The notes beneath the pieces are model-generated. The model was given only the letters and a program-made list of their open reading frames with translations, made no database searches and had not been told where the DNA came from. Below, in pieces: positions 12,008-40,230 of a DNA stretch of 64,000 nucleotides; position 1 is the stretch's first letter; every line of letters starts with the position of its first letter. Source of the DNA: Darksidea phi (lineage: Eukaryota; Ascomycota; Dothideomycetes; Pleosporales; Lentitheciaceae); NCBI GenBank assembly GCA_030770425.1, contig JASJFT010000010.1, forward strand, positions 1 to 64,000, in the 5' to 3' direction. The position numbers and the translations under genes were made by a program.

Positions 12008-12200
12008 AATAGTTACTTAAGTTCTTTAGATATTAGTAGTACTATTAATTCTTAATAGCTCTTCTTAAGAATCGATCCTTAATATTCTTAGACGTAGAAG
12101 CTAGAGATAGTAACTTATTAATTAAGTAAAAGAGTAAGATATTTTCGGCGCTTATCTAAGGATTAAAAATACTTAATTTCTACTTCTTATCCCGTTTAAG
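12008..12200 (+). repeat. Direct repeat, copy 2
   Basis: Second copy of the element at 11,031-11,220. It shares AGTTACTTAAGTTCTTTAGA, TCTTCTTAAGAATCGA and TTATTAATTAAGTAAAAG, with small deletions. Together the two copies bracket the 56-bp array and the N gap. Confidence 0.75.
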
Positions 12201-13740: not shown

Positions 13741-13925
13741 TATATAAGATATATATATAGTATAAAGACTATTATATAAATATATAATATATATAAATAA
13801 ATATAAAATACCCTAATACTTATCTAATAAATAGAATATAATATATTAAATAGTTTACTAGTACTTATATAAGATATATATATAGTATAAAGATTATTAT
13901 ATAAGTATATAATATATATAAGTAA
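13741..13925 (+). repeat. AT-rich direct repeat pair
   Basis: The string TATATAAGATATATATATAG followed by TATAAAGAYTATTATATAA occurs near 13,741 and again near 13,867, a spacing of about 126 bp. The copies differ by a few transitions. Non-coding. Confidence 0.6.
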
Positions 13926-14629
13926 ATATTTAATAATATTAGAGGTATATTATAGATATAAACTAATATTTAATAATATTAAAGGTATAAAATAAATATA
14001 CTATAGATATAGATTAATATAGAATACTTATATAATATATATTATACTATATAGTATTATACTATATTTCTTATAATTTTTTTAAAGTAAACTTTTTACT
14101 AATATAGGTCTAAAATAAAATTTCTTATTTTAAAAGATTTTAAATCTTTTCTTTAAAATAGTTTATTATAGAGTAGATTTTCTCTTATATAAAATTCTTA
14201 TCTAAAGCTCTTATAACTTCTTATTAATTTATTTATATTCTATTTAGTATATACTCTTAAGATTTCGCCTTTTATATATAGATAATATAGCTATCTTTAG
14301 ATAAAATATCTATTCTTATTATATAAGATTTTAAATAGAAATATAATATAGATAACTACTAATAACTATATAAGAATTCTATTATTATATATTTTCTTAA
14401 ATATATTTAATATATAGTTAGTTTTATACTACTAATTATTATAATTAAGAAGTTCTATTAATAATACCTCTTATTTATAGTATTAGGGATATTCTATTAT
14501 AATATTTAAAAGATTTAAAGTACTATACTTAAATAGTCTATTTTACTCTAATTTCTTTTATTAAAGAACTAGATAAATAATTATTAGTAAAGATATATAA
14601 TTAGTAGGTATTAATATAAGAAAGCTAGC

Positions 14630-14712
14630 TAAAGATAAGAGATAAATATAAGAAAGCTAGCTAAGAATAAAAGATAGATATAATAAAAAAGTTAACTAAG
14701 AATAAAAGATAG
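14630..14712 (+). repeat. Tandem ~37-bp repeat
   Basis: About three copies of a unit containing AAGAAAGCTAGCTAA(A/G), AATAAAAGATAGATATAA. The last copy has diverged. Inside the RIP block, non-coding. Confidence 0.6.
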
Positions 14713-15060
14713 ATATAAATAGGATACTAGTATTATTATAGATAATTTTTATACTATAGATAGTATTAGTATATTAACTTTTTATTATTACTATTAATCT
14801 TCTAATTAGACTTTATAGTTTAGTATTATATATTATTTCTTATTTAATATCTTAATATTTAAAATATTATCTTATTATATTATATATAGCTTTATAACTC
14901 TATTATTATATATAATTACTAGGATTATATTTATATTATAAGCTATAGTATAAATATTACTATATATAATTATTAGAATTATATATTTATAATAAAGTTA
15001 TATAAATAGATTATATTATATAGATATTATATAGATATATAATTTAGTAACTAGTTATAA

Positions 15061-15106
15061 AGAATATTAAGTAATATTAAGTAATATTAAGTAATATTAA
15101 GTAGTA
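15061..15106 (+). repeat. 10-bp minisatellite (ATTAAGTAAT)n
   Basis: Four head-to-tail copies of ATTAAGTAAT close to the border of the RIP block. Confidence 0.75.
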
Positions 15107-15361
15107 TTAGGGGTATAGAGAGTATAGAGCGCGTATACTATAGGTATAGACTATTTACTAGCTATACTAACTTATAGCGAACCTTTTATCGATATAGTAT
15201 AGATTAGAAGTAAAAATAAGCGAGCTTTCTTCTCTTTTAATTATCCTAGCTAATATAACTATTATTAATTTATTTCTAAATATTAGAAGTATAGAATAGA
15301 CTATTCTCTATAATTCTAATTAATTAGATTTAATTAATCGCGTCGTATTAGGTTATAATAA

Positions 15362-19174: not shown

Positions 19175-20342
19175 GACGCTGATCCTTCTACCCTGACAGA
19201 GTGAGAAGATGGGAGAAGGGGGAGATATCTGCGGGAAACGTCGGCGGTGGGTAGTCTGGGCAAGTCCCGAGACGGTGTCTCGTAAATGATGAATGTATAT
19301 GAAATGAGTGCGCGATTGGTCTTTCAACGCATTTTGGCAGTCTTTAGCTTCAATCCTCCTACGATGCATCACATTTATATCCCAGAACACGGTGGTCCAG
19401 TAGGGAAACGATGTTCGCGGGGCGGGGTAGGCCGATAGCTTGACTCAGAGCCGCGATTCGCGCGCCCTTATCTCGGTGAAACTAGTAACAGCAGGAGTAG
19501 GAACCTGGGTTGTACCTTACGCCCTGCAGCATTCCGCTTACCTATTTCAACAGCATCGCCGATACCAGAACCTGTGCCTCAATTGTGCAGCGCATCTCCT
19601 TGACCGCATAATACCTTGCTGATCCAACGCTATGTATACGTGCAGCGGCAAAATCTACGTAGAGATGACTGGTTCTGGGGGTTGTGCCTTACGCCCTGCA
19701 GCATTCCCCTTACCTATTTCAACAGCATCGCCGATACCAGAACCTGTGCCTCAATTGTGCAGCGCATCTCCTTGACCGCATGATACTTCGCTGATGCAAC
19801 GCTATGTGTACGTGCAGCGGCAAGACCTACGCAGAGACGACTGGTTCTGGGGCATGTTTTGCTATCTGCATCTCTCGTTCAACCACTACCTTTTCGCATC
19901 CTAGGAAGGCGCGTACGCCTTATCGAGTTTACACCATCTAGTAAGCTGACAGCAGGTCGTAGGCTTACATGGGTATCAAATACATCGTTATAACCAGTTT
20001 AACTATACCATGGTCGCTTGGAGGCTGGTATTTACAAAGCTACGTCATCAAGCCGCCAATACAAGGTTGCGTGTTTTTGGGGTCTAGCCTGTTACGGAAA
20101 GCAGCATCGCCGTATTATGTATAGCACTCGGGACCGATAAACGACGAATACACTTTGCTTAGATAAACCTTACGGAACATATCTATATATTTACCTAGAG
20201 TAACTACTAATATTAGCTATATATACTACTAAGCCTACATTAGTTACCGACATACCAGTAGCCGATTCTAGACTTCGCCGTAGAGGAAAAATTGGGCGAA
20301 GATTGCCATATCAAAAAGTAATGTACCTAGACCATCTACCAG
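19175..20342. other. Intergenic with a 172-bp tandem duplication
   Basis: No gene found. The promoter of the MFS gene lies at the left end, the duplication at 19,509-19,852, and the rest is moderately AT-rich unique sequence. Confidence 0.5.
19509..19852 (+). repeat. 172-bp tandem duplication
   Basis: Copies 19,509-19,680 and 19,681-19,852 share TTACGCCCTGCAGCATTCC, the block around CAGCATCGCCGATACCAG, and a GACTGGTTCTGGGG end. About a dozen differences are visible and most are G/C versus A/T transitions, consistent with mild RIP acting on a young duplication. No coding potential is obvious. Confidence 0.9.
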
Positions 20343-22003: not shown

Positions 22004-23349
22004 ATGGAGGAAGGTTGGACCAGTACGGTCGATCCGAAAGAGAAGAAAAGAATTCAGAATCGCGTAGCTCAACGCGTATACCGTATGTTGTACCATGAGA
22101 CTGTGGTCTATTAATAGACAATCACTTACTACACGAGATAGGGCAGAAGTTGAAGTCACGCATCCGCGACCTAGAGGAGCAGCTTGAGAGCGTTGCCGGC
22201 GCTTCGACACACAATGATACATCGAAGCCGTTGTCCTCATATGACGATCCAATATCGTCATTCGCAATACCAGAAGTCTCGCCGACAATAAACTCCGAGC
22301 CCATATCGGACGAATTGGGTACGAGTTCCAGCGACGCTACGTTTGTTGGCGATCATGCTCCAAGGTCGCTCCTGGGGTCCGACACCGCGGTCGAATCGGG
22401 TTTCAACGCAATCCCACAAACTAGCATTGTAGCTCAGCTGGACTCACTATCCCGGACTCCGGAGGAAGTTCAATTTATAGATTTTGAATGGCTTCTGACG
22501 GATTCGGGAGCGTTGAAAACCGTGCTAGAACGCACACAAGTTCACTCACCGTCAGTGGAAAGAGGACGCAAAAACCCAGACCACAGCCAAAGTCTGTCAA
22601 GTACATTGCTTCCGCGACATCTCGGTTCATCGGATTATGTTCAAGTCGGTGGCAATAGGAGTCAGTCAGTACCAATAGCACAAAATACCGGACACGAAAC
22701 ACTGCTAAGACCCGATGTCACAAGACTGGAGCGACTCAGTCTTCTAGTGGGATGTAGCAGACATCTCGGCTTCAGCTATTTAAACGAAGCGTTGTCAGTC
22801 TACTATACTTCCGACCTGAGCAATCAGCAATATTATTACACGAGCAGTGAGTCAGACGACTCACCAACTTCCTTTCTACTATCAGAGAACATTCAAAACA
22901 TTGGCCGACTTTGGAGCGGGGCAATTACGTGAGAGGGACACTGAGAAGTACGGAAGACATATATGCCGAGGAATGTAGACTAGCGAGGATAAATCTACGG
23001 GATCAAGGCATTATATAGGCCTGACACAGAAAGAATCCCAGGTTCATCAGATGTGTCAGATCACACGTGTTTTACAACTGGAGGTTTGTTCTACATCTCT
23101 AGCTTCTGCGGTACAACAAACGCTGACACATCACGTTTGGATCAGATTCCAAATACCTGGACCTTGATTACAAGCATCATACTACATACCGCTATGCCTG
23201 GAGAGCCTCAACGACCACAAACCATCTTGATGGTCATGATGCTACTCTGTTACCGTAACCAGGATCCTATCACTACACTTAGTCTATGTCAGGAGTACCC
23301 ATACCAACATGATGGTACGAACGATAATGGGTCCGATCTTCTCCATTAG
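22004..23349 (+). pseudogene. Fungal bZIP transcription factor, frame-broken
   Basis: Exon 1 (22,004-22,082) ends in the basic region NRVAQRVY. An intron 22,083-22,141 joins it to RQKLKSRIRDLEEQLES, so basic region and leucine-zipper start are contiguous, matching fungal bZIP factors (NxxAQRxxR). Exon 2 is open to a TGA at 22,930-22,932. Immediately after it, in another frame, TLRSTEDIYAEECRLAR matches the conserved C-terminal segment of this family, and QIPNTWTLITSI...MVMMLL (23,1xx-23,25x) matches the next conserved block in yet another register. At least one indel therefore breaks the gene. It lies upstream of the UstYa cluster and could once have been its regulator (inference). A short, still expressed bZIP product ending at 22,932 remains possible. 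Confidence 0.7.
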
Positions 23350-23841: not shown

Positions 23842-25075
23842 CTATGCTTGCGGACTGTCGCTTAACGCCAAGAACTGCCCGTCATGACGACGCTTTGGGT
23901 AGCTCCCCACTGAATTCAGGTTCAGATTTCGAAGCCCATAAGGTCCGGGCCTGCCGCCGGCGCCGCGGCTTGTCGAAGAAGTTACAACTTTTGTCAGCGG
24001 TCGAAGGGTTGGGATAGATGCTGCGATGAGGACCATGTAAGCTTCGAGTCTGGTGACAGTCAGTAAATTCTCAAATGGGAGTTGTGGTATGTGAGATCTC
24101 ACGTCCACCAGACCGCTAAGTCACACATGGCATCTGCGAGGATATCATTAGCATCTAAGATACCGGCCGGTGATATCAGGCTCTCGTACAGGTCGGGTCG
24201 CCCTTCTCGTTGATAGCGCGTAGAGATATGGTCTTCTTGATGGAGCACACCATCGCGCTGTCCCGTTCTTATTAGCAAATTCACCCAGAGCCGTTCCGAA
24301 TATCACCTACAACACTCCGAGGCCCATAAGCACGGACAAGGAAATTTTCGTTGTCAATTTCATGTTGAGATTCCAAAACAGGCTTGCTGGAAAGAGTGCC
24401 AAAACCAGGTCCACGACGGAGCATACAGCTATTCATGTAAGCTAACCCAAGATGTGTTCACGATGCAAGAAGCTACTTACATCCTTGGAAATATCCAGTA
24501 TACTGCTGTACTTTTGGGTCCCAGCAGTGCGCCTTTGGATTCGTGCCCCAAAATTCGTAGATCGGCTGACACTGAGCGAAGCTTATAGTGACGGTACCTA
24601 CATCAACAACGAACTGCGACCAAATGACGAACCAAAGGCATCTCTTTGGCCACTTCTTGGGAGGTACTAGCTGCAATAGCAGGAACGCGTACGAAATGCG
24701 TCCGAAACAGGGTGCCATAATGGAAAAAAACTCGCAGAGGTATACATATTTGATGGAGAATCCGATCTGCTCCGGGCTGAGAAACTGGATATGGCGACCT
24801 AGGCCCCAGTGCACTGAAATGGTGCAGAAAACGCTGTTACCGAGACACAGGACCTGCGAAGGTGTAAGAAACGTCGGTATAAAACAAACAAGGACACCCA
24901 CGAAGGTAAACAGGATGAGCCAGTCGTCAACTTGGAACCGTTTGATTATCCGCAGCCGAACGTAGCAGCGTACTGCGATGACGAGCAGAGCGATGCCCGC
25001 GAATACCCAGGCTATCACCAGCAATGTTGGCCCTAGATTCTCCGCAGCTAACGATGTGCTGTTTTCTGATGTCAT
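23842..25075 (-). CDS. Fungal rhodopsin-domain integral membrane protein
   Basis: Five exons: 24,481-25,075, 24,311-24,428, 24,190-24,257, 24,103-24,133 and 23,842-24,049. All four introns have GT..AG ends and three show GCTAA branch sites. Splicing gives a continuous 339-residue protein whose phases all agree. Seven membrane segments are expected: the first around LLVIAWVFAGIALL, and diagnostic family stretches are FQVDDWLI, CSVVDLVLALFPASL, FWNLNMK, AVWWTLEAYM and AASIPTLRPL. This family (PF20684-like, often called rhodopsin domain or PTH11-related) is abundant in plant-associated fungi; its ligands are mostly unknown. It is transcribed away from the first UstYa-like gene and shares an approximately 330-bp promoter region with it, so co-regulation is plausible. 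An ATG ten codons upstream (25,105) is an alternative start. Confidence 0.88.
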
Positions 25076-25405
25076 ATTCTGGAAATGGGCAAAAGATTGA
25101 AACAATGTGGGATATGCTTCGAGGTTCTACTGATTAGTTCTGAGATTGCAAAGGAAGGCGAGACGGAGTTCCATGATAAAGGGGTGGCAGCACCTCCATA
25201 GCGCCTGCTGCCACTCTCGGCCTTATTCCCGGCCCCATTCCTAGCCCCAAACTCCAAGGGACCAACCGGCATAATCTGCCGTTACCCAGAAAGCTCACGC
25301 GCCGCCGTTCTATTGCAGTTAAGGCTGACAAAGTTACATTGAAATGTAGCGCTGGAAGGTTTCCAAGTCAAAACAACTCTCTGCTCTCCCCTCCTCCATT
25401 CTACG
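25076..25405. promoter_or_regulatory. Divergent promoter, rhodopsin-like / UstYa-like gene 1
   Basis: About 330 bp between the start codons of two divergently transcribed genes. No clear TATA box or factor site can be asserted. The right end is pyrimidine-rich (CTCTCTGCTCTCCCCTCCTCC), as is common just upstream of fungal start sites. Confidence 0.45.
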
Positions 25406-26316
25406 ATGGACTCTGTCACAGCAAGCAAGTACAAGCGCGTCTCAGGAGATTCGGAGACCGAACGTTGGGAACAGGAGGATGATATTGCAAGCCAAGGCAC
25501 CCTCGACCGTGGAACGCTTAGACTGGCCATCTACCTCCTCGTTCCCCTTCTTTTGATCTCACTCTTCATGAATTTTGTTTTTGTTTCCCAGGAGTTTGGC
25601 GCCGCGTCGGGCAAGTGCAGTTGCAAGTCTACATACGGTATTTCCCTTATCCTACTATGGCGGAGACACTATCCCTAACGCCTGTGAGCGAATATTGAGA
25701 TCAACAAATACCCCCGAGAGATCTATCCCCATCAAGAATACGTCGATGAGGATAATTTGACTGCCACAGCCCTTGTGTGGGAGGCACTTAGCGGAGATCC
25801 TGGCGTAGTAGCCCTCAATGACGAATTCGTCGCAGCTAAGAAGCTACCCATGGCCATGCGATACCCGTGGGATGAGTCGAAGGGTGTCTATCTCCTTCAG
25901 GGTTTTCACAACCTTCACTGCATTGTACGTCTCACTCACTCAGGTTCCAATGAACTGACACTGAGTCGGCGACGCAGCGAACCGTTTTCCGCTCGATCAT
26001 GGACTATCATCATGGTAGGCCCCAGCAAATCGCCCTAGTACACATCTTGCATTGCCTTGATGAACTCCGACAAGACGTAATTTGTCACGCAGATGATACT
26101 CCGCGGTATGCCGGACTTCAAAGCCCACCCGGCACTGGAAAAGGACAGGCCAAGATGTGCGGAGACTGGGCCAGCCTGGAGAAGTGGGCCGTACAGAACA
26201 CAGCATGCTTTCGGCATGAGGATGAGATCGCCGATCGCATGGTGAATCGGTTCAAATTCTGTCCGGACGGATCACAGCCCTGGTTGGAGAAGAAGGGTCC
26301 GCATGGAAAGGTGTAG
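25406..26316 (+). CDS. UstYa-like (DUF3328) oxidase 1
   Basis: Three exons, 25,406-25,637, 25,689-25,924 and 25,978-26,316, encode 268 residues. The N-terminus is cytosolic and charged, followed by one membrane anchor (about residues 37-60, LAIYLLVPLLLISLFMNFVF), then a lumenal domain. Both family signatures are present: HNLHC at the end of exon 2 and HILHCLDELRQDVIC, that is two HxxHC motifs, the second followed by the classic DDTPRYAG. The context RYPWDESKGVYLLQGFHNLH is typical. UstYa-family proteins oxidise and macrocyclise core peptides in ustiloxin-, phomopsin- and asperipin-type RiPP pathways, and act in some non-RiPP pathways (cyclochlorotine). The C-terminal 50 residues with a conserved Cys pair are long for the family. 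Introns are 51 and 53 nt with correct phases. An 86-bp duplication begins at its stop codon. Confidence 0.9.
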
Positions 26317-26478
26317 AAGAAAAACGGGCACGGGGCGTGTCGAATCAATGCGGTGAAACATTGGGTATGCGTAGTAGCTTTTTAGTTGAAATAAAGGTGT
26401 AGCCTAAAAACGGGCACGGGACGTGTCGAATCAATGCGGTGAAACATTGGGTATGCGCAGTAGCTTTCCAGTTGAAAT
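26307..26478 (+). repeat. 86-bp tandem duplication spanning the UstYa-1 stop
   Basis: Copy 1 starts at 26,307 with AAAGGTGTAG (containing the stop codon) and copy 2 at 26,393 with the same word. Both continue through CGTGTCGAATCAATGCGG and GAAACATTGGGTATGCG to GTTGAAAT. The few differences are mostly C/T and G/A transitions. Confidence 0.9.
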
Positions 26479-26876
26479 TATACGAATCCGGTTGACTGAA
26501 GGACCCATTCATGTCGTCATTAGCGGGACGATCACGATCTTGGCAGGTCTTGGCGTGGTTCCAGTGCCAGGGCCTTGGGTCTGACCAAAACGCACATGGG
26601 GCGCACTTTCCGCTCGAAAGGAAGGCGCGGAACCCCCCTCATGACTACGCCGCAATATACCTTAATATACCTCGAAAGGAGACGGTCAGACACGGGCAGG
26701 ACAAGCTCAGCGCTTCTGCAAGACCGCTGCCACGGCGGCACAGTGCGCGACTCGTTGGTTATATGACTTTAGCTGTCCCTACTCCAAGGCGTGCCGCTGC
26801 GCTCTCCACCCAGCTTCCCTCTTCGAGTCACCGGCCTACCTTGGCGGCTTCTGAAATCTTGCATTTCGCCTTCACC
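26479..26876. promoter_or_regulatory. Upstream region of MFS transporter 2
   Basis: No gene supported. It precedes the second MFS gene and presumably holds its promoter. The bases before the ATG (CCTTCACC) suit a fungal start context. Confidence 0.4.
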
Positions 26877-28319
26877 ATGTCCGAAAAGGAAAGCCATAGT
26901 CCCTTTCCAGAACCGACCCCTCGGGAGGGTCGACACGAAAGCCGTACTGCTTGGCTTCAGGTGCTGGGGGCCTTCTGCTTGAATGTCAACACCTGGTAAG
27001 TGATACAACACTTGTCATATCGGCGTAGGCATGCTGATTACGGCAGGGGTCTACTGGGAAGCTACGGCGTTTACCAAACATATTACTCCCTCCATCTCCT
27101 ACACGAGTTTTCGGCCTCGGAAATCTCCTGGATTGGGTCCGTGCAAGGATTCTTCATGTTCCTGTTCTCGTTCTTCATAGGCCCCGTGTTCGACGGCGGT
27201 CATCTGCGTTCCCTCCTCTGGGTCGGCTCTACGCTTTCCGTGCTGGGTTTCTTCATGACTAGCCTCTGCACTCGGTACTGGCAATGCTTCTTGGCGCAAG
27301 GAGTCGCCATGGGGATTGGCTTCGGATGCCTGTATCTCCCAGCCCCGGCTCTAGTCTCCATGCACTTCCAGAGACACCAGGCCTTAGCGATGGGACTCTC
27401 CTCTTCTGGGAGTGGAATAGGTGAGATTGCCCTGCAGTTTATATGTCAGGCGCTGCTTACCTTTAATGCAGGCGCCGTTATCTTCCCCCTTGTCTTCAAC
27501 CAACTCGAACCACACATCGGCTTTGGCTGGGCCACTCGGGTCCTGGCTTTCATTCTTCTTGCCACTTCAGTGATCCCGCTCGCCCTCATGCGTTTTCCGA
27601 GCCCGGCGGCTCCGGGGGCTGAGCATGCGGGCACAGGTCACGAACCTCACGGACAAGACGCACAGCCTCTGGATACGAATGCACCCGCATTTTTTACCCG
27701 CGTCCTTCGCAATCTCGTTGATGCATCGGCATTGCGTGATGCCCCGTTTGCCTTCTTGCTTACCGGACTTTTAACTACGTTTATGGGCATCTACACTATT
27801 CTGTACTACGTAAACCTCTTAGCCATGCAACGGACTACGGCCGTGCCCAATGTGACTTCTTCTATCCTGGTCATTGTAAACGCCGCTTCGACGGTGGGCC
27901 GGATAGCACCTTCCGCTCTGGCTGACCGTGTCGGCCCGGCCCACGTCTTGGCCGCAACGGCGTTGTTCTCTGGCGTCTTAGTTCTCTGCTCATTGGCCAT
28001 TAGCAGTGCGGCGGGAATCATCGTCTGGGCTGTTGTATTTGGTTCCACTGCAGGCGCGTTTATGGGTTTGCCAGCCGCCGGAATCGTCAGTGTCAGCAAC
28101 TCTCGAACGAAAATCGGAGTGAGGCTTGGTATGACGCTGGGAACGGTGGGGTGCGGTGTTTTGGTTGCGGAGCCGATTGCTGGTGCAATTCTCGGTCGCC
28201 GCAATGGAGGTTGGCCAGGGCTAGTAGCATGGTCGGGCTCGTTGATGCTGGTCGGCTTCGTGTTCGTCGCGGCGGCAAGAGTCGCAAAAGTAGGCTGGAG
28301 GCTTAACAGCGCAGTCTGA
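26877..28319 (+). CDS. MFS transporter, monocarboxylate-permease type (cluster exporter candidate)
   Basis: Exons 26,877-26,995, 27,047-27,420 and 27,472-28,319 give 446 residues. Intron 1 (GTAAGT..GGCAG) restores NTWGLLGSYGVYQ. The second intron (GTGAGA..TGCAG, 51 nt) has no in-frame stop but is supported because its removal rejoins SSSGSGIGGAVIFPLVFN, a conserved MFS stretch; retention would insert 17 residues. About 12 hydrophobic helices, the opening EGRHESRTAWLQVLGAF and the motif GFGCLYLPAPA identify the MCT-like branch. It lies between a UstYa-like gene and the O-methyltransferase, so export of the cluster product or self-protection is the likely role (inference). It is not a close copy of the MFS gene at 17.8-19.2 kb. 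Confidence 0.9.
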
Positions 28320-28439
28320 TGGGTAGTAACATGACGCCATTACGCCCAAGTTCCCCATTCGTAAGACTGCTGAGCAGAGATTATAATGAGTTTCATTATC
28401 TTTCGAGCGCTGTCCACGCTAAGAAACGCACAAGCGCCA

Positions 28440-29883
28440 TCACAACTCCGTGGTAGGACCTATCTCAGCCTCGATGATACCGTCATGGTCGAAGTGCTCC
28501 CAGAGCTTAATATTGATGAAGCCGGCTTCTTCAAGGAGCTTCGTCCACTGTGCCTTCGAACGTTCCATTCCTCCGTTGAAGGTCATCATGACCAAGTCGA
28601 ACCTCGCCTGTATCTCAGCAGCGCCTGTATCGGGCAAGATCAACTCATGAATCAGAAGCTTAGAATAGCCAGGAGCCATCGAGGCACGGATGTTCTTCAG
28701 GATAAGGTAACAGTACTTGTCAGACCAATCATGGAGGATATGATGGAGAAAGTACCCTCTTGCACCTAGCGCCGATTAACATGAGAAATAGCCATCGGTT
28801 AACCCTTTACTCACCCCTGACGGGCTGTTCCGTGAAGAAGTCGTGTGGCATCTTCACGATTTTCGCACCAAGTGCATTTTCGGCGATACCATCCAAGACT
28901 TGAGGCAGGTCTTGGAGTACCAGCATCCCCTCACAGTGCTTCGGAGGCGAGCCGAATGTCGAATCAAATGCCAGCAGGTCATGTCCTTTGCCTCCCCCAA
29001 TGTCGACGAGTAAGGTTGAACTTTTCGAGGAATCGAAACCAGTGAGAAGGCGCCCGTGGACGTCGTACCATTCGTGCCAATATTCCCTAGCGCCCATGGT
29101 ATTACCCATAAATAAGTTGAAGTCCTGGAACAAAGAGGGAATGGACTGAAGGAAGTCGAAAATGTTGTATTTGGTCTGGTTTGCGTATTGGACGAAGCCG
29201 TCCGTAGGCTCGCTCGGTGCTTTGTGCCCGGTCTCGCGTAGGAACTTCGGTGCCTTGATGGCGGAATTGATGAGGACATCGAAACTGAAGAGAGTCAAGG
29301 AGTGTTTTCTAGGATTGAGGAGTGGGGAATGGGGAGCTTACACGAATCTATGGCCCGCAGCTATTGGTGCAGAAGCCATGGCTTTCGTTGTCTCATTGGC
29401 ACTCCACGTCTCTCGACCTGGCTCCTCTACGAAGTCCACTGCGGCTAGTAGTCGCAGAACCCTGGCTGCAGGAAAGGTTATCTTGACGTTTCTTTAAATC
29501 CCATGGTTGCCCACTCACAAATGAGCACTTTCTCTCCTCCAGACCCAAGTGCCAGCTGTTCCGAGGAAATGGCACTATCACTTGCTGAAATGAGCTTAAA
29601 TAAGTCGAGATCCACGGCTATTCGAGCTGCAATCGAGATATAAGGCTTGGATCATGGTCAGCAGGGGCAAAATTCGCGGGAAATATTGAGACGCTCTCAC
29701 TCTAAAGACCAGATCCGTTGCTCGATTCACAGGACCTTCAAGGGCGGCCGCAAGCTTTCTAGCTAGAGTGAGGGTTTCGCCTTTTACAGCCTCATCTTTC
29801 AAGATCTGAGAACTATCGATTTCTCGAAGCTTCGAAACTAGTGAATGGACATCATCGCCTTCAGCGGCTCGAATTTCGCTCAT
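28440..29883 (-). CDS. SAM-dependent O-methyltransferase (COMT-like)
   Basis: Five exons: 29,701-29,883, 29,519-29,645, 29,342-29,465, 28,815-29,284 and 28,440-28,765. All introns are 49-57 nt and all phases agree, yielding 409 residues, the usual size of fungal plant-type O-methyltransferases. An N-terminal helical dimerisation part contains AARIAVDLDLFKLIS and SRVLRLLAAVDFV. The SAM-binding motif is LLVDIGGGKGHDLLAF. The catalytic-histidine region reads YFLHHILHDWSD, and the C-terminal motif is EEAGF. It transfers a methyl group to a hydroxyl, probably on the cluster product (inference). It is divergent from the repeat-peptide gene, with 487 bp between the starts. Ustiloxin and phomopsin clusters also carry methyltransferases, but whether this one acts on a peptide cannot be told. 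Confidence 0.9.
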
Positions 29884-30370
29884 GGCATCAAACTATGCGA
29901 TAAGACGGCGGGTACGTAAGAGCGGAGCAATCGAGCTTGGCCGAAAATGATGGCGAGGAACGATGAGTACTCGAGAGGTAGGGCAATTGTTTCTGAACGC
30001 TGTGCGTGAATCCATGGAGCTTCGCCGCACCGGTGTGGCAAGGCAGCCAAGGCGCTTGTGTTGTGCGACACATTCATTTATTTCGGGCTCCGGAGAAAGT
30101 ACGAGCTATCGGCCAAGGCAGAGGATAATCCTGCGCGCTATTAGCACATTGCATGCCCGGGACACCTGCCGAATTCAGAATTCAGAATGCAGGTGACCAT
30201 CGCGCATCACCATTGCTACGCTGTATACCTCCGTACGATTCCGAACGTATGACATATGAGAAGCAACATCCCACGATCGCATCCGCGATTTCTTCAAGCA
30301 CTGGCCACCGCCACCAAACCGAGTTCGTCCCAGCATTTCACGTCCGATTCTCTTCACTTCCTCACCCACC
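29884..30370. promoter_or_regulatory. Divergent promoter, methyltransferase / repeat-peptide gene
   Basis: A 487-bp region between two divergent starts, with no gene of its own. The last 90 bases before the peptide ATG are C/T-rich (TTCTCTTCACTTCCTCACCC), a usual fungal core-promoter feature. A direct repeat GAATTCAGAATTCAGAATGC lies at about 30,172-30,191. Confidence 0.45.
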
Positions 30371-30649
30371 ATGAAGGTCTCCATCGTTGCGCTCTCCATC
30401 ACCTTTACGCTGGCATTGGGTGCAGCAATTCCCAAAACTGGAGTCGGTAAGGAAACGTATTCCCCTTCAAAAGGTTTTCTTTTGTTAACATCGAAGCCAG
30501 ATGCTGATGGCGCGGTCAACTATCCGGCCAGCATCGACACCTCCTGGGTCGATGCGCAAAACCAGGTCAAAAGAGCAGACTCGGACGAAGCGGTTGTCTA
30601 TCCTGCAAAGGTCGATTTGAGCTGGGTTGATGCGAAGGACAAGGAATGA
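30371..30649 (+). CDS. Candidate RiPP precursor: secreted peptide with two 26-residue repeats
   Basis: A short gene with a signal peptide (MKVSIVALSITFTLALGAA) followed by two near-identical 26-residue repeats. The shared pattern is D-x-D-x-A-V-x-Y-P-A-x-[I/V]-D, then x-S-W-V-D-A. The first repeat ends in the Kex2 site KR; the second runs to the C-terminus. A 54-nt intron, 30,447-30,500 (GTAAGG, TTAAC branch, GCCAG end), is predicted. Removal gives 74 residues and brings the first repeat next to the leader; retention keeps the frame and gives 92. A signal peptide, KR-linked repeats with an invariant Tyr, and neighbours of the UstYa, methyltransferase, MFS and P450 families are the hallmarks of dikaritin-type RiPP precursors. 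I do not recognise this core. A secreted non-RiPP peptide or pheromone-like product is the alternative; no pheromone motif is present. Confidence 0.8.
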   Translation: MKVSIVALSITFTLALGAAIPKTGVGKETYSPSKGFLLLTSKPDADGAVNYPASIDTSWVDAQNQVKRADSDEAVVYPAKVDLSWVDAKDKE

Positions 30650-31344
30650 TTCGCTGTGTAGAGTAGATGGCATGGGACAATGCTACTCCTCAAGGGGTAG
30701 GCTTCGTTTTACTACTATCTGCTATAGTGATCTTTATTCAAGAGGAAGGACTCTGTTTGCGTTTGAAAATCTACCAGTCGCTATTGTCCTCTCCCTTTGC
30801 AGAGAGTAATCGCATTGACATAGTACCAAGCGATTTAATGCTAATTCCTTTCGTGCTCGGTGGAACCAACTGCATGACGTGAGCATAAAACCGGGTGGGG
30901 AAGAGCATGGCCTGGAGATTGCAAACGGGGATAGATCCTTGTGTAGGATACTTTATCGGGGATATGGACCCCTGTAGCGGATGCATACGTTATTCATCCT
31001 ATTGCATGATAGCCCAAGAGAACTATTGTAGCATCAATACTGCAGTGCACCCACATCGCAGGCTAAAAAGTCGCAAATTGGAGGCCTAATTCTGCAAGTA
31101 GCACATGCCTCTGCAACCGTCCCAGCACAGAACTGCACCATGCAGATTTGATTGGAACCAAAACACCGCGTGACCGACCAACCTAAGAGTCAAATGCTTA
31201 GACGGCCTTGAAGAGGCAAGGCCTCCAATGTAGCATAAAGCCTAGATAACGCACAGCATGTCACCGAAGGAATGACTATTGGCTATCTAGCCCGTAACTC
31301 CCTCCAAGCTGCTCTTTGCCTCACCCCGGGCATACACCTGCATG
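30650..31344. other. Intergenic between convergent genes
   Basis: The repeat-peptide gene and the second UstYa-like gene converge here. No coding evidence; it holds the two 3' ends. Confidence 0.5.
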
Positions 31345-32390
31345 TCACGGCATAGGCCTATCCAATGAATCCACATCATACAAATCAAAAACCCGCTGCC
31401 CGGCCCAGTCATTCAACGCTCCCCAGTCTATGCATTCGTGTGGGCTGACATCGAAATTGGTCGGATAGAACGCTGCTGGCTTGTCTGGATGCTGTGCAGT
31501 GTCATTGATCCATCGGAAGGTGACCAGTGAGATATCGGGCTTGCACATCAAGGTCTCCCTGAGGTATTCGACACAATGATCTGAATTGCGAGGAGTGAGC
31601 GAGTGCATCCTGTCCACGGAAAACGGTTGGGCTACTACGCACCTGCATGCTTCATCTGCCTCTCTATTGCAATGCCCGATTCGTTGGCATGGTAGTACTC
31701 CTTGTACATCATCCGCCGTACGAGTTTCTTTGCGGGACGTTAGCATGTTCTTGCGAGAGCAAGCGAGATACTGAAGGGCCCATACCAGGCAGTGAAGGGA
31801 GTGAAATACACTAAGCGATGCAATACCAGCTGTGCCGTCTTTCGTGTAGACTGAGCTAAGCCCAAGCTTATCCAGTTCGGTTCGCGGTATTCGGATATTG
31901 TCATCTACAGCACGCATTTCAGCAAACGGGCCTCTCCAAATAATATTGTGCAACTTCTGTGAGACACCTACTTTGAAGTAACTCGTGCCATGCCTCCTCC
32001 AGCTCCGGACGCGGCGCTCCGGTGAACGGGTTTCCTTCGAGCTTGGTAGGGAAATACCGTGGTTCGGGTTTAAGCACTTCTCTCGCTGGTACTATTCACT
32101 CATCAGCGCGGTCTTGGTGTGGTAAACCTAGAGCGTATACATGGAAGTTGAAGAGCCATTTCATTCTTCATGGGACTGAAGTGAACGATGAAATATCCGA
32201 TGAAGGCCACCGAGTAAATGCAGATTAAGGTTAGGTGCAAGGTAGCCCATGGATTCCATGTGCTTCTCTTATTAATGTAGCGGTTCAAGAGGGCACTCAA
32301 AGAAGTACTCTCTTTCAACTCGACTTCTTCTTCGATTGCCAGAAGACGTTGAAAAGAGAGGGAATCGTCGTGTTCAGGGCGGAAGGGCAT
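31345..32390 (-). CDS. UstYa-like (DUF3328) oxidase 2
   Basis: Five exons: 32,141-32,390, 31,972-32,091, 31,786-31,904, 31,643-31,727 and 31,345-31,580, giving 269 residues with all phases consistent. A cytosolic N-terminus (MPFRPEHDDSLSFQRL) precedes one membrane anchor (TLHLTLICIYSVAFIGYFIV). The lumenal domain holds the conserved PARPELEEAW-like segment (APRPELEEAWHELLQ), the first HxxHC motif in FHSLHCL and the second as HADHC in KHADHCVEYLRETLMC, followed by the family signature PDISLVTFRW. The HADHC motif appears only after splicing intron 4, which supports that model. It is probably a peptide-modifying oxidase or macrocyclase of the cluster. It is divergent from the third UstYa-like gene. 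Confidence 0.9.
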
Positions 32391-32762
32391 GACGAATGGA
32401 TGTCGTGGAGGTAGAAGTGCAACTGGGTGGAAGTGCAACTGGGTGGAAGTGCAACTGGGTGGAAGTGCAACTGGGTGGAAGGAGCGTTATTTGGAGACGG
32501 AGAAGTCCGAAGACGAAAGCCCACGGAAGCTGGGTGCAATAAGATGACAAGTGAGGAAGGAGCTTATTACGTGTGCGACGATCGCTCCGGGGTATCATGC
32601 AGGGATGGAAAGACCACAGCCGAAAACCTGCTGCGCCGAGTTGAACCCGCACTGTATATCCCGCTACTCGCAAGTTCGGCAACTATCCAAGCACTTCAAA
32701 CTTACGAATCTGTCCCGTTAGCAATGCGATTTCCCTCTCAGATACCCACCATCGGAAACTCG
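32391..32762. promoter_or_regulatory. Divergent promoter of UstYa-like genes 2 and 3
   Basis: A 372-bp intergenic region driving two oxidases in opposite directions. It holds a 16-bp minisatellite close to the start codon of gene 2. Confidence 0.5.
32415..32481 (+). repeat. 16-bp minisatellite in the divergent promoter
   Basis: AAGTGCAACTGGGTGG begins at 32,415, 32,431, 32,447 and 32,463, with a partial fifth unit at 32,479. Four perfect units. It lies 25 bp upstream of the minus-strand start at 32,390, so it is probably in the 5' leader or core promoter of UstYa-like gene 2. Confidence 0.95.
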
Positions 32763-33558
32763 ATGAGCGCGTCCTACAGTCAGCTTTCCTTAGAAGACGA
32801 GGGCCGTACCGTACGGAAAAACAGGTATCGGGGGTTATCCTGCCGTGATATTCTGGTTGCAGCCATCTCTGCGACGTTCGGCGCAGTCATCGCACTTGCA
32901 TTCTCAACTAGAACTAGGACGGCGTCGCAAGACTTCTCTAGTGGTACGTATAGTGACGGAGGATGTGGGCGTATACTAACTTCCCCGTATTTAGACGTGC
33001 CTATCGCCTTGGTCGAAAGGGTTTTTACGTATAACAAGAGCTTCGTGGGAAATCCAGTGGATGGTGATGATGTGCAGGCAAACTGGGATTCGCTTGTTCC
33101 AAGTATGTGTCTCTTTTAAATTGAGAGCGGGTTATTTCAATGGAACTAACAGTATCAGTCGGTCGAGGGACTGTCGAAGAGCCAGCAGGTTCCCACAACT
33201 TCTACACCCTATCCGTTATTCATCAATTGCACTGTCTGGTACGTACGTCTGGAGCCGCGATCGAATCCATACTCCTAAGTCGGATACTGACCGCCTAAAG
33301 TGGTCTCTCCAGCAAATGCTCTATTCCTCAAACCCTGATACCAAGGATTCGGCGCATCAGCGACACGTCCGGCACTGCGTCGACTACCTCAGACAAGGTC
33401 TGATGTGCGCTGCCGATACAACGTTGGAGCCAGTCGACCCCGCCCTCGGCGGGGTCACAGGCTGGGGAGACCTGAGGAAGTGCAGGGATTTTAATGGGTT
33501 GAAAAGTTGGGCTGAGAAGCGACGAGCGAGCAATGAACGGGGCTTTAGGGACCGCTAG
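32763..33558 (+). CDS. UstYa-like (DUF3328) oxidase 3
   Basis: Three exons, 32,763-33,102, 33,159-33,238 and 33,301-33,558, encode 225 residues. One membrane anchor (DILVAAISATFGAVIALAF) follows a basic cytosolic N-terminus. The lumenal part carries HQLHCL at the end of exon 2 and HVRHCVDYLRQGLMCAADTT in exon 3, giving the two HxxHC motifs, then LEPVDP and GWGDLRKCRDF, all usual in this family. Introns of 56 and 62 nt are in phase and the second has an ACTGAC branch. It diverges from UstYa-like gene 2 across a shared promoter, a common layout for UstYa pairs that work as partners. An in-frame ATG at 32,724 would add 13 residues. Confidence 0.9.
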
Positions 33559-34534
33559 CCTAAGTCAGATCGGGGCCAGCGCCGTGAACAAAACCCTTAA
33601 ATGTCCACTAACCAGTGTGATTTTCGCTCCTTTGAATATTCGGTTTCGTTCTCCGGCGTTATCACCGTTCTCGCGTAAGTTTCTGCAAGGCTTGAACAGA
33701 CTACACTCGTACTTCCTGCACGCAAAACAAAAACAAGCTTTGGGTCGTGCGTCTGGGCGCTTGATGTCTGGACATACTAGAATGTAAAGAAGCAGTAGCC
33801 AAAACAGGGAGCAAAAAGTTCTTCATCATGGTACGCATTCCGCGGATTCGAGAGTCTGGTACCCAAATGGCTGTTTGATTTTTCCGGCATCGTGTGGTCC
33901 TCCTCAGACTATCTATCTAGCAGGACACTTTCCTCGTATCTGCCTGAGAATGGGCCTTACTACTCAAAATACGGCAATGTCCATTCTGTATTTCGCAGAC
34001 ATAATAAGGACAGTGTCGGGGCCAATCAATGAACCGGCTGCGCGCTCCGGGAATTATCATGATGTTGATTTCAACAAAAGCCGGATCCCGATGCTGGGTT
34101 GATTCTTCTATGCAGCGAGTGTGCGGCGAGCGATACCTCATGTTGACCGTCTCCAACCGAGCCGAGAAGTGATGGAGGATGACATGCACAAGACCACTCA
34201 TGTTCAAGACGCACATAGGCGCCGTGACGACCTCATCCTTGCTCGCATAAAGATGTCTCGCTTAGCATAGCCAGGTTTCTGCCCTCAGCCTTCCGGCCAA
34301 CACGCACACTCCCTGAGGGCTAATCAATCTTCGGGGAGTACAAAATATTGTTGAGAATCCAAAAATATCCGTGGTGTGGAGGCGTCACTCCTGGACTCGG
34401 GATAGCGTTGCGGGGCCTCGGGGGGCGTTTAGTGATCTATTATTGCGGCGTAGCATAGGCGGCGGCAACACCCATCTCTCGCTCGTACTCTACCAGCGCC
34501 GACTCCGCAACTCCCGCAACAACATTCTAACACT
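33559..34534. other. Intergenic, no intact gene
   Basis: No intact frame with family motifs. It separates UstYa-like gene 3 from the P450 gene and contains the P450 promoter. Confidence 0.45.
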
Positions 34535-36482
34535 ATGGCCAGTGTAGGGAGCATTGCTCTGTCCCTTGTTGGAGCATATTCGGTTTTGTGGATCCTGAGG
34601 GCCGTTTACAGACTCTATTTTCATCCATTATCGCATTACCCCGGCCCAAAATTGGCGGCCATCTCAAAGCCATGGTGCGTACTGTCGCGCACGAACCTTT
34701 CCGTTCACAAGGCCATATCATTCCTAATCGCGATCATACAGGTATGAGTGGTATTGGAACTTCTACCAGAATGGCATGTTGCTATTTGAGATCGAGCGAC
34801 TTCATCAGAGGTTAGGTAAGAAGGATCGCCACCAACCTCACCCCATTGGGAGTCTGAGTTGCAAGCTGATGAATAATTCCGAAAGGCCCAGTAGTTCGCA
34901 TCGCCCCTAATGAGCTCCATATCAACGACCCAGGAGTGTTCTTGGAGATGACAAAAGTGGGTTCATCTTTCACAAAAGACCCCGGCTTCTACGACTTCAT
35001 CACTTTTCCGGGGACGTCAATCGGAGAAACCGACCCTGTTCGCCATCGCATACGAAGACAAGTCTTGACCCCCGCATTTTCGCCCGCCCGAGTGCAAGAG
35101 GAACTTGCGCCAATGGTCAAAAGTAAAGCCGATCATTTGATGAGCCGTTTTGAAGAGTTCGCCGTCCGCGATGAGCCCGTCAACATATTCATGGCCACGA
35201 AAGCCTTCACGATGGATGTCATCTCTAATATTGTATTCGGAAAGGAACTGGGCTGTATAGCTAATCCGAACTTTCGTAACAAGTTCATAGAATATCTCCA
35301 CTCGACATTTGAAATGGGTTGGACTGCTACGGCGTTCCCGAATCTGACGCGTTTCTCACTTTCTTTGCCGGAGTGGCTCTCAGAGAAGCTGTTTCCTATT
35401 CCTATCATGGAGTTCAAGAAGGTGCGTTGACTGGCCGATATCAGAGATTAGTCGAACTGACAGTAGACCAGAAATGCATTGGCTTGATGGATAGTTACCT
35501 TCGCGAACGTGACGCCCCCACAATCAGCAGTCAGGACACACCAAGTGGGAGAAAGAAATTTAATCGGTCCGTTGTCATTGATCTTCTGTATGACCCAACA
35601 TCAGCCAAAGATCATAGTGTTCTCAATGCTAGCCAGCTTGCCGAGGAGGTCATTATGCTTCTCTCCGCCGGCAACGATACGACGTCCAACTCTATGATCA
35701 TCGGTATCTACCAGGTCCTAAGACATCGAGATGTCTATGAGAGGGTTACCAAAGAATTAATTACGGCCTTTCCAAGAGCCGAGGAAGGTATCACCTACGA
35801 CCAAGCTAGAAAAATACCTTATCTGGTGGGTAGATGGATGCCATTCTTCCTCTCTTATGGCTAACAGGGTCTTAGGCAGCAGTTATCAAGGAGATTCTGA
35901 GATATAGCTCACCCTTACCGGGAAAGGCTCCACGCGTTGTTCCCCCGGCGGGTTGGACCTTGTATGGCAAGAAGGTTCCAGCAAAGGTACGCAAACATGA
36001 GCAAACCATAGTCAATTCGAATAATTGTTGACATTTCGATTAGACTATTATATGCACCTCGTCGCATCTTCTCAATCGACATGCCGGGATCTGGTCGGAG
36101 CCCGATCGGTTCCTGCCTGACCGATGGCTCCTCCCGGATTCCTCCCATCTCGAAAAATACATGGCAAGCTTTTACCGTGGATCCAGGCAGTGCCTGGGGA
36201 AAGAGTAAGTGTCTAGTATATGACCAGCTTCGCCCCATCTAATTCCATGTAGCCTGGCGTATTGCGAGATGTTCACGCTGATCGCAAATATGTTCCGTCG
36301 ATTCGAGCTCGAAATATACAATACTACCGATGCGGATATGGAATGGATCGATCTGCTAATGACATTGTAAGTGCCCAGCTGGACTTCATCGAATGAGAGG
36401 AAATTCTAATCGTGGTTCTAGCTTCCTTGGCCGCAACTTCCACGTAAAGGTGAAGGTGAGGATGGATTCCGGTCAAGGCTGA
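34535..36482 (+). CDS. Cytochrome P450 monooxygenase
   Basis: Eight exons: 34,535-34,674, 34,742-34,815, 34,886-35,421, 35,472-35,825, 35,876-35,986, 36,044-36,204, 36,253-36,366 and 36,422-36,482. Introns are 48-70 nt and every junction keeps phase, giving 516 residues. An N-terminal ER anchor precedes the hinge HYPGPKLA. The I-helix oxygen-binding motif is [10 protein letters not shown], the K-helix ExxR is in [12 protein letters not shown], the PERF-like motif is PDRFLPDRW and the haem-binding loop is [17 protein letters not shown] with its Cys ligand. The enzyme is therefore complete. It resembles fungal P450s of secondary metabolism; the exact CYP family cannot be assigned. Sitting at the end of the UstYa cluster, it could hydroxylate the peptide. 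The short exon 5/6 spacing and the 50-nt intron 35,422-35,471 are my least certain junctions. Confidence 0.9.
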
Positions 36483-38369: not shown

Positions 38370-40230
38370 ATGACTATCTACTGGTTAATACTCCTCATTC
38401 TGAGGCTTCACCTACACCTCGTGCAGTCCGCCGCCGTCAGCCAAGAAAACACATCGGACACGCGGGAGAATGATGCCAGTGACGATTTGGCACCCTCGGC
38501 ATTCACGGCACTGACACCAAGACCGGATTTGTTTAGCATTCCATGCTTCGCGTGTCTCATGGAAGAATGTCCCGAGGTTCGCAGATACGGTGCTAACGCC
38601 ACAATCTGGATGAAGTGCGCTGTGGGCGGCACCCTTTCCCCGGCGTTCGGCGAGTAAGCGAAGTCTCGTTCTATAATTAGCCCAAATGACTCAAGTATTG
38701 ATGATTGGAATAGCACCTGGGCTGAAACGGTAGACGGTTGTTACATTGTAAGTGCAGGCTCCACTCCTACTCAAGCCATCACATCGCTGGTTAAGTTAAG
38801 AATTCTGACTGGCATAGATGTATTCTGACTTCCAATACTATCCCCACCGGTCCAAGCGAGAGGCAGCGGCAGACCCTATATGCGATAGGGAAAAAGCACT
38901 TCGAATGCCCAATGCTACCCTGCCGCACGCCTACAAGCGACAAGATCCCGAGCCCACACCCACCTACTTTCCCGCCATCGTTGATTCAAAGCACGACAAA
39001 AAGTGTCTTGTATGCGCCGATCCATTATGTCAAGTCGAGACGACCTATACGCGCAATGCATCAATTGAGCTAGAGTGCTGGACCGTCTCAACCATGGGAC
39101 CTGGCGAAGTGATCTCATTCCCGAACTATGACGAGCGATGGGTCATGACCAAAGAAGGCTGTTACCTCGCCCTGAATGAAGTAAGCATTCCGAGCTGCAC
39201 AGACCCTAGCGCCTCGAGGTGTATGCCATACTGCGAACCACCTCCTCACTACTGGGCCACCATCAAAGACTACACATTGGCCAAAGAGTGTGCGACCAAC
39301 TGCTCAGGCGCAACGGGATGGCTCCGGTGGGCTTATGTGGCCGACTTCGACTGCTGGGATTACGGGGACGTTGTGCAAGGCAATAATACCTGGTACAAGG
39401 GAACGGAGGTCAAGTACGGAAGCAATTGGTACACCGCGTGGTGGCCAAAAGCCGCACTTGGCCAATTTGGAGGCACTGGTGAGCCGCCTAATCGATGCCT
39501 TCCGAACGGGAACTCGACCGAACCGGAGCGACGGAGGCGGACTCTCTCATCCGGTCGTGGCGTAAATCGAGATGCAGATTATGCCGAGGCCAAAGCAATC
39601 GGACATGCCGCACCTAGAGCCGTTCAAGTGGTATATGCCTACGTGAACGAAGTCGACACTCGGTGCCGTCTCTGCACGAAAAGAATCTGTCCATACTACA
39701 CAGTTTACCAGCCGGGCGATAACATGGAATTTAACTGCTTTGTATACGGAAGCGTTGTCGATGGTAGCGATATCTGGCTGAAGTCCGGCGAGGCGGTCCG
39801 ATGTTACGTGCCTCGGCGCTATATTGTCCTCAACGGAGGATCTTCGATAAGTTACTGCCGTGACGATACTCGCCGTTCCATATCTTCGTCTGAGCCCGTT
39901 GTTCAGGACAAGCGCCCAGCTACCGTCGCCCAAAGAGCTCTAGCGCCTCAGGTCTCCGATCCTTCGCAGTCTCCGGATCCTCCAAATATCGATGGATGCC
40001 AGAACAGTCCAGAGCAATGGGAGCAATGGTGTTACAACCAGGCATTAGCATGTTGCGTGAACCGCACCAAGATCGGTCTTTACTGGGATTGTTCAAATGA
40101 GAGGTATACCATTCAGTGGAAGGATGCATGTCGAGATCTAAGAACAAGAACAAATTGCTCAATAGCTAGGAGGCTGGGGAATCAGATGGAGGGTTGCGAA
40201 GGCGGGGACGTTTATAGGGACCCGAATTGA
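38370..40230 (+). CDS. Large secreted protein with repeated Cys modules
   Basis: Exons 38,370-38,653, 38,696-38,747 and 38,818-40,230 give 582 residues. A signal peptide (MTIYWLILLILRLHLHLVQS) is followed by at least three modules that share C-x2-C-x4-C, then 13-14 residues to another Cys, then a W/I...GCY(I/L/V) end. The modules are seen at PCFACLMEEC, KCLVCADPLC and RCRLCTKRIC. A fourth, looser unit contains TGWLRWAYVADFDCWDYGD. Several dibasic sites (YKR, DKR) lie between modules and could be cut by Kex2. The C-terminal third has another Cys-rich stretch (CQNSPEQWEQWCYNQALACC). Several Asn-X-Ser/Thr sites suggest glycosylation. I do not know the family; the modules may be SH3-like. It is not obviously linked to the peptide cluster. 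An in-frame ATG at 38,355 is an alternative start. Confidence 0.8.

What the first reader, a model, noticed from the sequence alone, without database searches (positions are those of the whole stretch)
25406..36482. Candidate undescribed dikaritin-type RiPP gene cluster
Seen directly: three separate proteins with the paired HxxHC motifs of UstYa/DUF3328, a complete P450, a complete O-methyltransferase, an MFS transporter and, in the middle, a secreted peptide with KR-linked repeats. Known: fungal RiPP pathways of the ustiloxin, phomopsin and asperipin type are defined by UstYa-family oxidases next to a secreted repeat precursor cut by Kex2. Inference: these seven genes form one pathway making a modified cyclic peptide. 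No tyrosinase-like gene is seen, unlike ustiloxin, so the chemistry may be simpler or different.
Basis: partly seen in the sequence, partly recalled or inferred. Interest (0 to 1): 0.93.

Follow-up and report, generated by a model that had tools for sequence, protein, structure and literature searches.

The report
Conserved UstYa-linked fungal peptide gene cluster
A fungus carries a small gene cluster that very probably makes a chemically modified, ring-shaped peptide; close relatives of its peptide precursor occur in very different fungi, often on the same piece of DNA as one particular enzyme gene, and we saw no description of it in the papers we could search.

Summary
Confirmed and extended. 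At 25406-36482 lie three intact UstYa/DUF3328 genes, a P450, an O-methyltransferase, an MFS transporter and a secreted-type precursor with two units joined by KR.

The precursor belongs to a conserved family: 52 hits, five of them in the profile itself, 48 at E<=1e-3, in Dothideomycetes, Sordariomycetes and Eurotiomycetes. The unit is D-x-D-E-A-V-V-Y-P-A-x-V/I-D-x-S-W-V/I-D. A separate search with UstYa-B gave 36 relatives; 15 share a contig with a precursor hit, some with locus tags 2-4 apart. This ties precursor and UstYa-B into one RiPP system.

Best reading: a dikaritin-like (UstYa-dependent) RiPP pathway with an undescribed core, probably cyclised through the near-invariant Tyr. No tyrosinase or S41 peptidase was found on this contig, and the dibasic Kex2 linker is not conserved (24 of 49 linkers). 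Linkage of P450, OMT, MFS and UstYa-A/C in relatives, and the product itself, are untested. New variant of a known kind.

The parts
30371..30649 (+). RiPP precursor gene, exons 30371-30446 and 30501-30649 (intron 30447-30500, 54 nt, in frame): 74 aa, signal-like start (by eye) plus units DADGAVNYPASIDTSWVDA and DSDEAVVYPAKVDLSWVDA with KR between
   Evidence: one donor and one acceptor/branch-point set 54 nt apart; segment 4 of 18 identical to P0001 versus 60 of 74 in the flanks; relatives; annotated relative P0002 lacks the segment
31345..32390 (-). UstYa-B, 269 aa, 5 exons, hydrophobic N-terminal segment, HSLHC + HADHC; next gene to the precursor; its relatives share contigs with precursor relatives
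   Evidence: 162.8 bits; 36 relatives
32724..33558 (+). UstYa-C, 221 aa (or from a second ATG at 32763), HQLHC + HVRHC; divergent from UstYa-B
   Evidence: (94.9 bits)
25406..26316 (+). UstYa-A, 268 aa, HNLHC + HILHC
   Evidence: (61.2 bits)
26877..28319 (+). MFS transporter, 446 aa, introns 26996-27046 and 27421-27471
   Evidence: (scanned with the second intron in)
28440..29883 (-). O-methyltransferase (Dimerisation + Methyltransf_2), 409 aa; best-scoring solved chain is MpaG'
34535..36482 (+). Cytochrome P450, 516 aa, 8 exons, heme motif [10 protein letters not shown]
22004..22932 (+). Small bZIP-like gene, 289 aa (basic region KEKKRIQNRVAQRVYRQKLKSRIRDLEEQLE); candidate cluster regulator
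   Evidence: bZIP_1 at 23.3 bits, below the curated cut-off of 27.6, so tentative
24476..25126 (-). Fungal rhodopsin-domain frame (one exon read), between the bZIP-like gene and UstYa-A; membership doubtful
   Evidence: 67.4 bits, cut-off 27

Best explanation
This is a UstYa-dependent RiPP gene cluster built round a conserved precursor family that I found described nowhere in the held library. Shown: the genes, the family, and the contig linkage of the precursor with UstYa-B. Inferred: the signal peptide (read by eye) sends the precursor into the ER/Golgi lumen. A Kex2-type protease cuts at KR between the two units here, and perhaps at a single Arg in relatives that lack KR. UstYa-B, perhaps with UstYa-C as UstYa pairs with UstYb in ustiloxin, being a membrane-anchored copper oxidase by family, cross-links the core through the Tyr of YPAx(V/I)D. 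P450, O-methyltransferase and UstYa-A then oxidise and methylate the ring, and the MFS protein exports it. The window's precursor would give two congeners (cores with S-I and K-V).
For: Seven genes open after splicing. Precursor family: 52 hits at E<=10 of 7990 candidates scored, 48 at E<=1e-3, five of the 52 being rows of the profile. Conservation counted without fixing the position in question: among 97 units found by their Trp side, Tyr is kept in 97, Pro in 95, Ala-10 in 96; among 99 units found by their Asp side, Tyr in 98, Trp in 96, Asp-18 in 93. Linkage: 15 precursor/UstYa-B pairs on the same contig, 14 with the same named organism and one on an unnamed 2,919-bp contig; the smallest named contigs are 46, 49 and 84 kb. 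Locus tags ISF_09178/09180, AB5N19_14058/14060, N7540_000145/000149, and Uu.00g120090/120110 (two genes apart if numbered by tens, which I assume). Both HxxHC motifs in the window's UstYa-B and in 35 of 36 relatives; the exception is P0087, and in P0086 the two stand only 8 residues apart. [quoted passage not shown] No PKS or NRPS seen among the ORFs I looked at (one search list by eye; by Pfam).
Against: No expression or chemistry data. P450, OMT, MFS, UstYa-A and UstYa-C were not tested for linkage in relatives. 21 of 36 UstYa-B relatives have no precursor partner in the hit list. If the 15 pairs were genes placed at random in 40-Mb genomes, 0.61 would share a contig, mostly because of four chromosome-size contigs. 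The Beauveria gryllotalpidicola pair is 21 tags apart and both members look degenerate. The UstYa-B model was of low confidence (pLDDT 59.5). No promoter word was shared beyond background.
Confidence: 0.85

Rival explanations
1. Precursor and UstYa-B (with UstYa-C) form the RiPP core, but the O-methyltransferase, P450, MFS and UstYa-A belong to a neighbouring or decayed small-molecule cluster.
For: The OMT's best-scoring solved chains are MpaG' and LepI, which I recall as polyketide-pathway enzymes. UstYa-A has the weakest Pfam score of the three (61.2 bits) and is the UstYa gene farthest from the precursor. DUF3328 enzymes also act in a non-RiPP pathway, cyclochlorotine (PMC12435403).
Against: The OMT lies between MFS and precursor, inside the run of genes; no PKS or NRPS was seen in the ORFs looked at; all these genes are open.
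Confidence: 0.25
2. The precursor is an unmodified secreted peptide (signal or effector) that only happens to sit among UstYa genes.
For: In one survey 6120 of 7878 KEP genes had no DUF3328 gene nearby (PMC7329392 passages). High conservation across classes would suit a signal.
Against: Recurrent contig sharing with one UstYa group (15 pairs); Tyr and Trp almost always kept.
Confidence: 0.06
3. The cross-link joins Tyr and Trp (eight residues apart) rather than Tyr to a beta-carbon inside YPAxVD.
For: Tyr in 97 of 97 Trp-anchored units and Trp in 96 of 99 Asp-anchored units. A benzofuranoindoline-bearing fungal RiPP class is in print (Nie et al. 2025, seen only as a reference; that such a ring joins Tyr and Trp is my recall).
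Against: The Trp may simply be part of a follower recognised by the enzyme. Asperipin-2a links Tyr to beta-carbons, and ustiloxin and phomopsin link Tyr to Ile (PMC6514808 and PMC7329392 passages).
Confidence: 0.25

Closest known systems
Dikaritins: ustiloxins (YAIG/YVIG), phomopsins (YVIP core), asperipin-2a (FYYTGY)
   Same: Precursor with signal-like start and repeat units with KR, DUF3328/UstYa genes next to it, core with Tyr; a P450 and methyltransferase are known from the ustiloxin cluster and a transporter from asperipin-2a (passages).
   Different: No tyrosinase or S41 peptidase found on this contig (asperipin-2a also lacks a tyrosinase); an OMT instead of an N-methyltransferase; AVVYPAx(V/I)DxSW instead of EDYxI; two units instead of 8 (PhomA) or 16 (UstA); dibasic linker not conserved in the family.
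Conserved KEP motif 3, DADAATXYV[A/V]D (Le Marquer et al. 2019, PMC6339444, passage)
   Same: Also from Pezizomycotina; its DADAA-x-x-Y start resembles this family's D(A/S)D(E/A)AVVY.
   Different: V[A/V]D instead of PAx(V/I)D after the Tyr, and no SWVD in the motif as printed; that survey set at least three repeats. Common origin not tested.
Lichen RiPP Clan R1 (PMC12048977, passages)
   Same: Two UstY homologs with an O-methyltransferase between them.
   Different: Has a tyrosinase and FGE-sulfatase; no conserved repeated precursor was found there.

Membership tests
Dikaritins / ust-RiPS | DUF3328/UstYa gene(s) with HxxHC...HxxHC near the precursor gene | tested here: met
   three genes; the next gene on one side is UstYa-B
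Dikaritins / ust-RiPS | Precursor with ER signal peptide and repeated cores separated by Kex2 sites | tested here: inconclusive
   in the window: hydrophobic signal-like N-terminus (by eye, no predictor run), two units, one KR; in the family 24 of 49 linkers have KR or RR, 48 of 49 a K or R
Dikaritins / ust-RiPS | Core with Tyr | tested here: met
   both window units; Tyr in 97 of 97 Trp-anchored and 98 of 99 Asp-anchored units of the family (the exception is a His unit in P0015)
Dikaritins (phomopsin/ustiloxin subset) | Tyrosinase homolog (UstQ/PhomQ) in cluster | tested here: not met
   27 matches in the genome, none on this contig; asperipin-2a's four-gene cluster lacks one too (passage)
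Dikaritins (phomopsin subset) | S41 peptidase in cluster | tested here: not met
   7 matches, none on this contig
Dikaritins (phomopsin/ustiloxin subset) | ED-Y-x-I core | tested here: not met
   core is AVxYPAx(V/I)D
KEP (Umemura 2020 definition) | at least 3 tandem repeats of 8+ aa between KR, KK, RK or RR | tested here: not met
   the window has 2 units; definition from a PMC7329392 passage; 12 of 53 sequences have three units, and some of these (e.g. Beauveria with QKRS linkers) might meet it
Dikaritins / ust-RiPS | Oxidative macrocycle in the product | not testable with these tools
   needs mass spectrometry

The most novel reading that the evidence does not exclude
A deeply conserved fungal RiPP, found in insect pathogens, a dermatophyte relative and plant-associated fungi (lifestyles recalled), whose 18-residue unit has stayed nearly fixed across three classes while its processing linkers differ between dibasic and monobasic. 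UstYa-B and its partner would join the Tyr and Trp into a new macrocycle, and the fixed sequence would mean a conserved target or an endogenous signalling role rather than a fast-evolving toxin.
Probability: 0.2. Interest if true: 0.82.

Novelty: new variant of a known kind. Interest (0 to 1): 0.63.

Why it matters
A UstYa/DUF3328 enzyme was shown to be copper-dependent only in 2025 (PMC12435403), and few peptide substrates of the family are worked out. A precursor/enzyme pair kept together in several fungal classes gives a natural substrate set (about 50 sequences) to define the recognition sequence and the cross-link. It also suggests that catalogues requiring three or more dibasic-separated repeats miss conserved fungal RiPPs, and it offers a family-level signature (D-x-D-E-A-V-V-Y-P-A-x-V-D-x-S-W-V-D plus UstYa-B) for annotation.

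Tried and rejected
Shared promoter word for a bZIP regulator: the best 7-, 8- and 9-mers were shared by 4, 3 and 2 of six upstream regions, no more than in 200 random draws from the rest of the window; dropped.

A second precursor locus in this genome: none seen. The spliced precursor found only this locus, and P0006 found it plus one match at E 0.42.

Structure: AlphaFold2 of UstYa-B relative P0067 with 36 rows gave pLDDT 59.5, pTM 0.38. It has one well-scored helix at 45-68 and the two HxxHC motifs on neighbouring helices (152-167, 178-200), as in the CctR description, but I judged it too weak for a fold search and ran none. No solved chain resembles UstYa-B by sequence at E<=1.

Identity with asperigimycin (name and Aspergillus flavus origin recalled): the paper is not held. 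None of the organism names shown for the 52 precursor hits is A. flavus, so I think it is a different family, but I could not compare cores.

Literature: the strings YPASID, YPAKVD, YPASVD, AVVYPA and VDLSWVD occur in no held paper. Further searches. Of the papers cited I saw passages only, except PMC12435403 (abstract and section 3 part 1). Most subscription papers and all supplements were not available, so 'undescribed' holds only for this library.

Gene tree of UstYa-B: largely follows taxonomy (11 label changes against 22.9 in shuffles) but is poorly supported (12 of 34 inner branches starred; the three named Pleosporales group at only 74/38). Penicillium herquei falls beside Aspergillus homomorphus (96/88), a possible transfer, not pursued.

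Counts: two of 102 units were too short for all positions, and its pattern fixed D3 and A5 and limited positions 1, 6, 8, 9, 10 and 13, so I recounted with anchors on either side. Gene models that failed (wrong offset or splice site) were replaced; the MFS model scanned still held one intron.
Full report
What is there. The window is the first 64 kb of contig C2 of a 51.35-Mb, 477-contig assembly. By its nearest relatives it is probably a fungus of the Pleosporales: UstYa-B is 75% identical to a Lophiostoma macrostomum protein and 73% to one of Karstenula rhodostoma, each over about 69% of its length, and a precursor relative is in Phaeosphaeriaceae sp. PMI808. The order of Lophiostoma was looked up; the others are recalled. 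I built spliced models for the genes in the finding and for a bZIP-like gene. Pfam confirms UstYa three times, P450, O-methyltransferase and MFS over their cut-offs; the bZIP match is below its cut-off. Ten flanking ORFs scanned against Pfam gave HET, another MFS, phosphoesterase and alpha/beta-hydrolase domains and six without a match. I saw no PKS or NRPS there or by eye among the ORFs of 130 aa or more.

The precursor. The ORF 30371-30649 reads 92 aa, but it contains one good donor and a branch-point/acceptor set 54 nt away. Against relative P0001, which is also read through, this segment is 4 of 18 identical while the flanks are 60 of 74 identical (binomial p about 1e-7). The annotated relative P0002 (76 aa) lacks it. 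So the spliced precursor is 74 aa: a hydrophobic signal-like start ending AAIPK, then DADGAVNYPASIDTSWVDAQNQV-KR-ADSDEAVVYPAKVDLSWVDAKDKE. The two units are identical at 13 of 23 positions, with a score reached by 0 of 5000 shuffles.

The family. A single-sequence search gave 5 relatives of 9 candidates. A profile of the window precursor and these five gave 52 hits at E<=10 (the five included) of 7990 candidates scored, 48 of them at E<=1e-3. Organisms named include Phaeosphaeriaceae (Dothideomycetes), Beauveria, Cordyceps, Clonostachys, Seiridium, Xylaria, Nemania, Hypoxylon and Biscogniauxia (Sordariomycetes), and Aspergillus, Penicillium and Arthroderma (Eurotiomycetes). Classes were looked up for Lophiostoma, Arthroderma and Seiridium, the rest recalled. 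No name shown gives a function. Counting units found by their Trp side (97 units; 52 of 53 sequences hold the anchor), Tyr is kept in 97, Asp-3 in 97, Ala-5 in 97, Pro-9 in 95, Ala-10 in 96 and Asp-13 in 95. Counting 99 units found by their Asp side, Tyr is kept in 98, Ser-15 in 93, Trp in 96 and Asp-18 in 93. Positions 11 and 14 vary. An earlier count with one pattern agrees but had fixed or limited several positions. By that pattern sequences hold 1 (16), 2 (25) or 3 (12) units; some are unspliced fragments, so these are lower bounds, and the last hit (P0052, E 0.23) is doubtful.

Processing. Only 24 of 49 linkers between units hold KR or RR, yet 48 of 49 hold at least one Lys or Arg. The named Pleosporales member, the window and most Hypocreales members have KR or RR; none of the Xylariales and Aspergillus linkers does, and they mostly have a single Arg (DAR-S). 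So 'KR-linked repeats' is true of this window but is not what the family conserves. One KEP survey demands at least three repeats between dibasic sites (PMC7329392, passage), another at least four fragments after KR/RR (or KK) cleavage and three repeats (PMC6339444, passage). The 41 of 53 sequences with fewer than three units, the window's precursor among them, would fail these filters as they stand. The nearest published motif I found is DADAATXYV[A/V]D, motif 3 of PMC6339444 (passage).

Linkage. UstYa-B was searched alone, without any use of the peptide, and returned 36 relatives at E<=1e-5 of 784 candidates. If these were genes placed at random in 40-Mb genomes, 0.61 pairs would share a contig, mostly because of four chromosome-size contigs. 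For two of those four the locus tags are 2 and 4 apart (Seiridium, Penicillium herquei), for Anthostomella they are 120090 and 120110 (two genes if numbered by tens, assumed), and for Aspergillus steynii the numbers tell nothing. Cordyceps fumosorosea gives 2 apart on a 150-kb contig. One pair, Beauveria gryllotalpidicola, is weak (21 tags apart, divergent). The other 21 UstYa-B relatives have no precursor in the list: five are on unnamed contigs under 2.5 kb, and for the 16 named ones a missed small gene, a 90%-cluster representative from another strain (as in Beauveria bassiana, where both occur in different records) or true absence cannot be told apart. I count this as strong evidence that precursor and UstYa-B work together. 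I had no searches left to ask the same of UstYa-A, UstYa-C, P450, OMT or MFS.

Mechanism. In ustiloxin, UstQ/UstYa/UstYb are needed for the first cyclic intermediate; asperipin-2a needs one DUF3328 protein and its four-gene cluster has no tyrosinase (PMC6514808, passages). [quoted passage not shown] The window's UstYa-B and 35 of its 36 relatives keep both motifs. The model of relative P0067 has a like order of elements (a hydrophobic helix, then two helices with one HxxHC each) but low confidence. I therefore infer: secretion into the lumen, copper-dependent cross-linking through the Tyr, proteolytic release, and P450/OMT tailoring with MFS export. Which atoms are joined is open; Tyr to a beta-carbon in YPAx(V/I)D is my first choice, Tyr-Trp the second.

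Membership. Met: UstYa genes beside a Tyr-bearing precursor. Partly met: repeats and Kex2 sites. Not met: tyrosinase, S41 peptidase, ED-Y-x-I core. [quoted passage not shown] I file this as dikaritin-like (UstYa-dependent), not as a phomopsin- or ustiloxin-type dikaritin.

Novelty. No held paper contains the motif strings, and in the listings of searches on UstYa, DUF3328, dikaritin and fungal RiPP I saw nothing that describes this family. Supplements and most subscription papers were out of reach, so a member may already sit unnamed in a table. It is a new variant of a known kind, of interest because the pair is widespread and the unit nearly fixed in sequence.

Noticed in passing
1-15300: AT-rich block (GC about 0.20-0.26) with strong RIP-like signature (TA/AT 1.57; (CA+TG)/(AC+GT) 0.01) ending about 10 kb left of the cluster.
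   Followed up: partly
32410-32481: 16-bp unit GGTGGAAGTGCAACTG repeated 4.5 times between the divergent UstYa-B and UstYa-C genes, i.e. in their shared upstream region.
   Followed up: no
26307-26478: 86-bp tandem duplication (92% identical) that begins in the last codons of UstYa-A.
   Followed up: partly
19507-19850: 172-bp tandem duplication (94% identical) left of the cluster.
   Followed up: partly
38818-40227: 470-aa cysteine-rich open frame without Pfam match right of the cluster.
   Followed up: partly
UstYa-B relatives P0070 and P0077 (tree): Penicillium herquei UstYa-B groups with Aspergillus homomorphus beside two other Aspergillus sequences (96/88), a possible transfer of the cluster.
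   Followed up: no
genome G000: About 24 UstYa loci in the genome (31 exon-level matches, merged by me); those outside the window were not examined for precursors.
   Followed up: no
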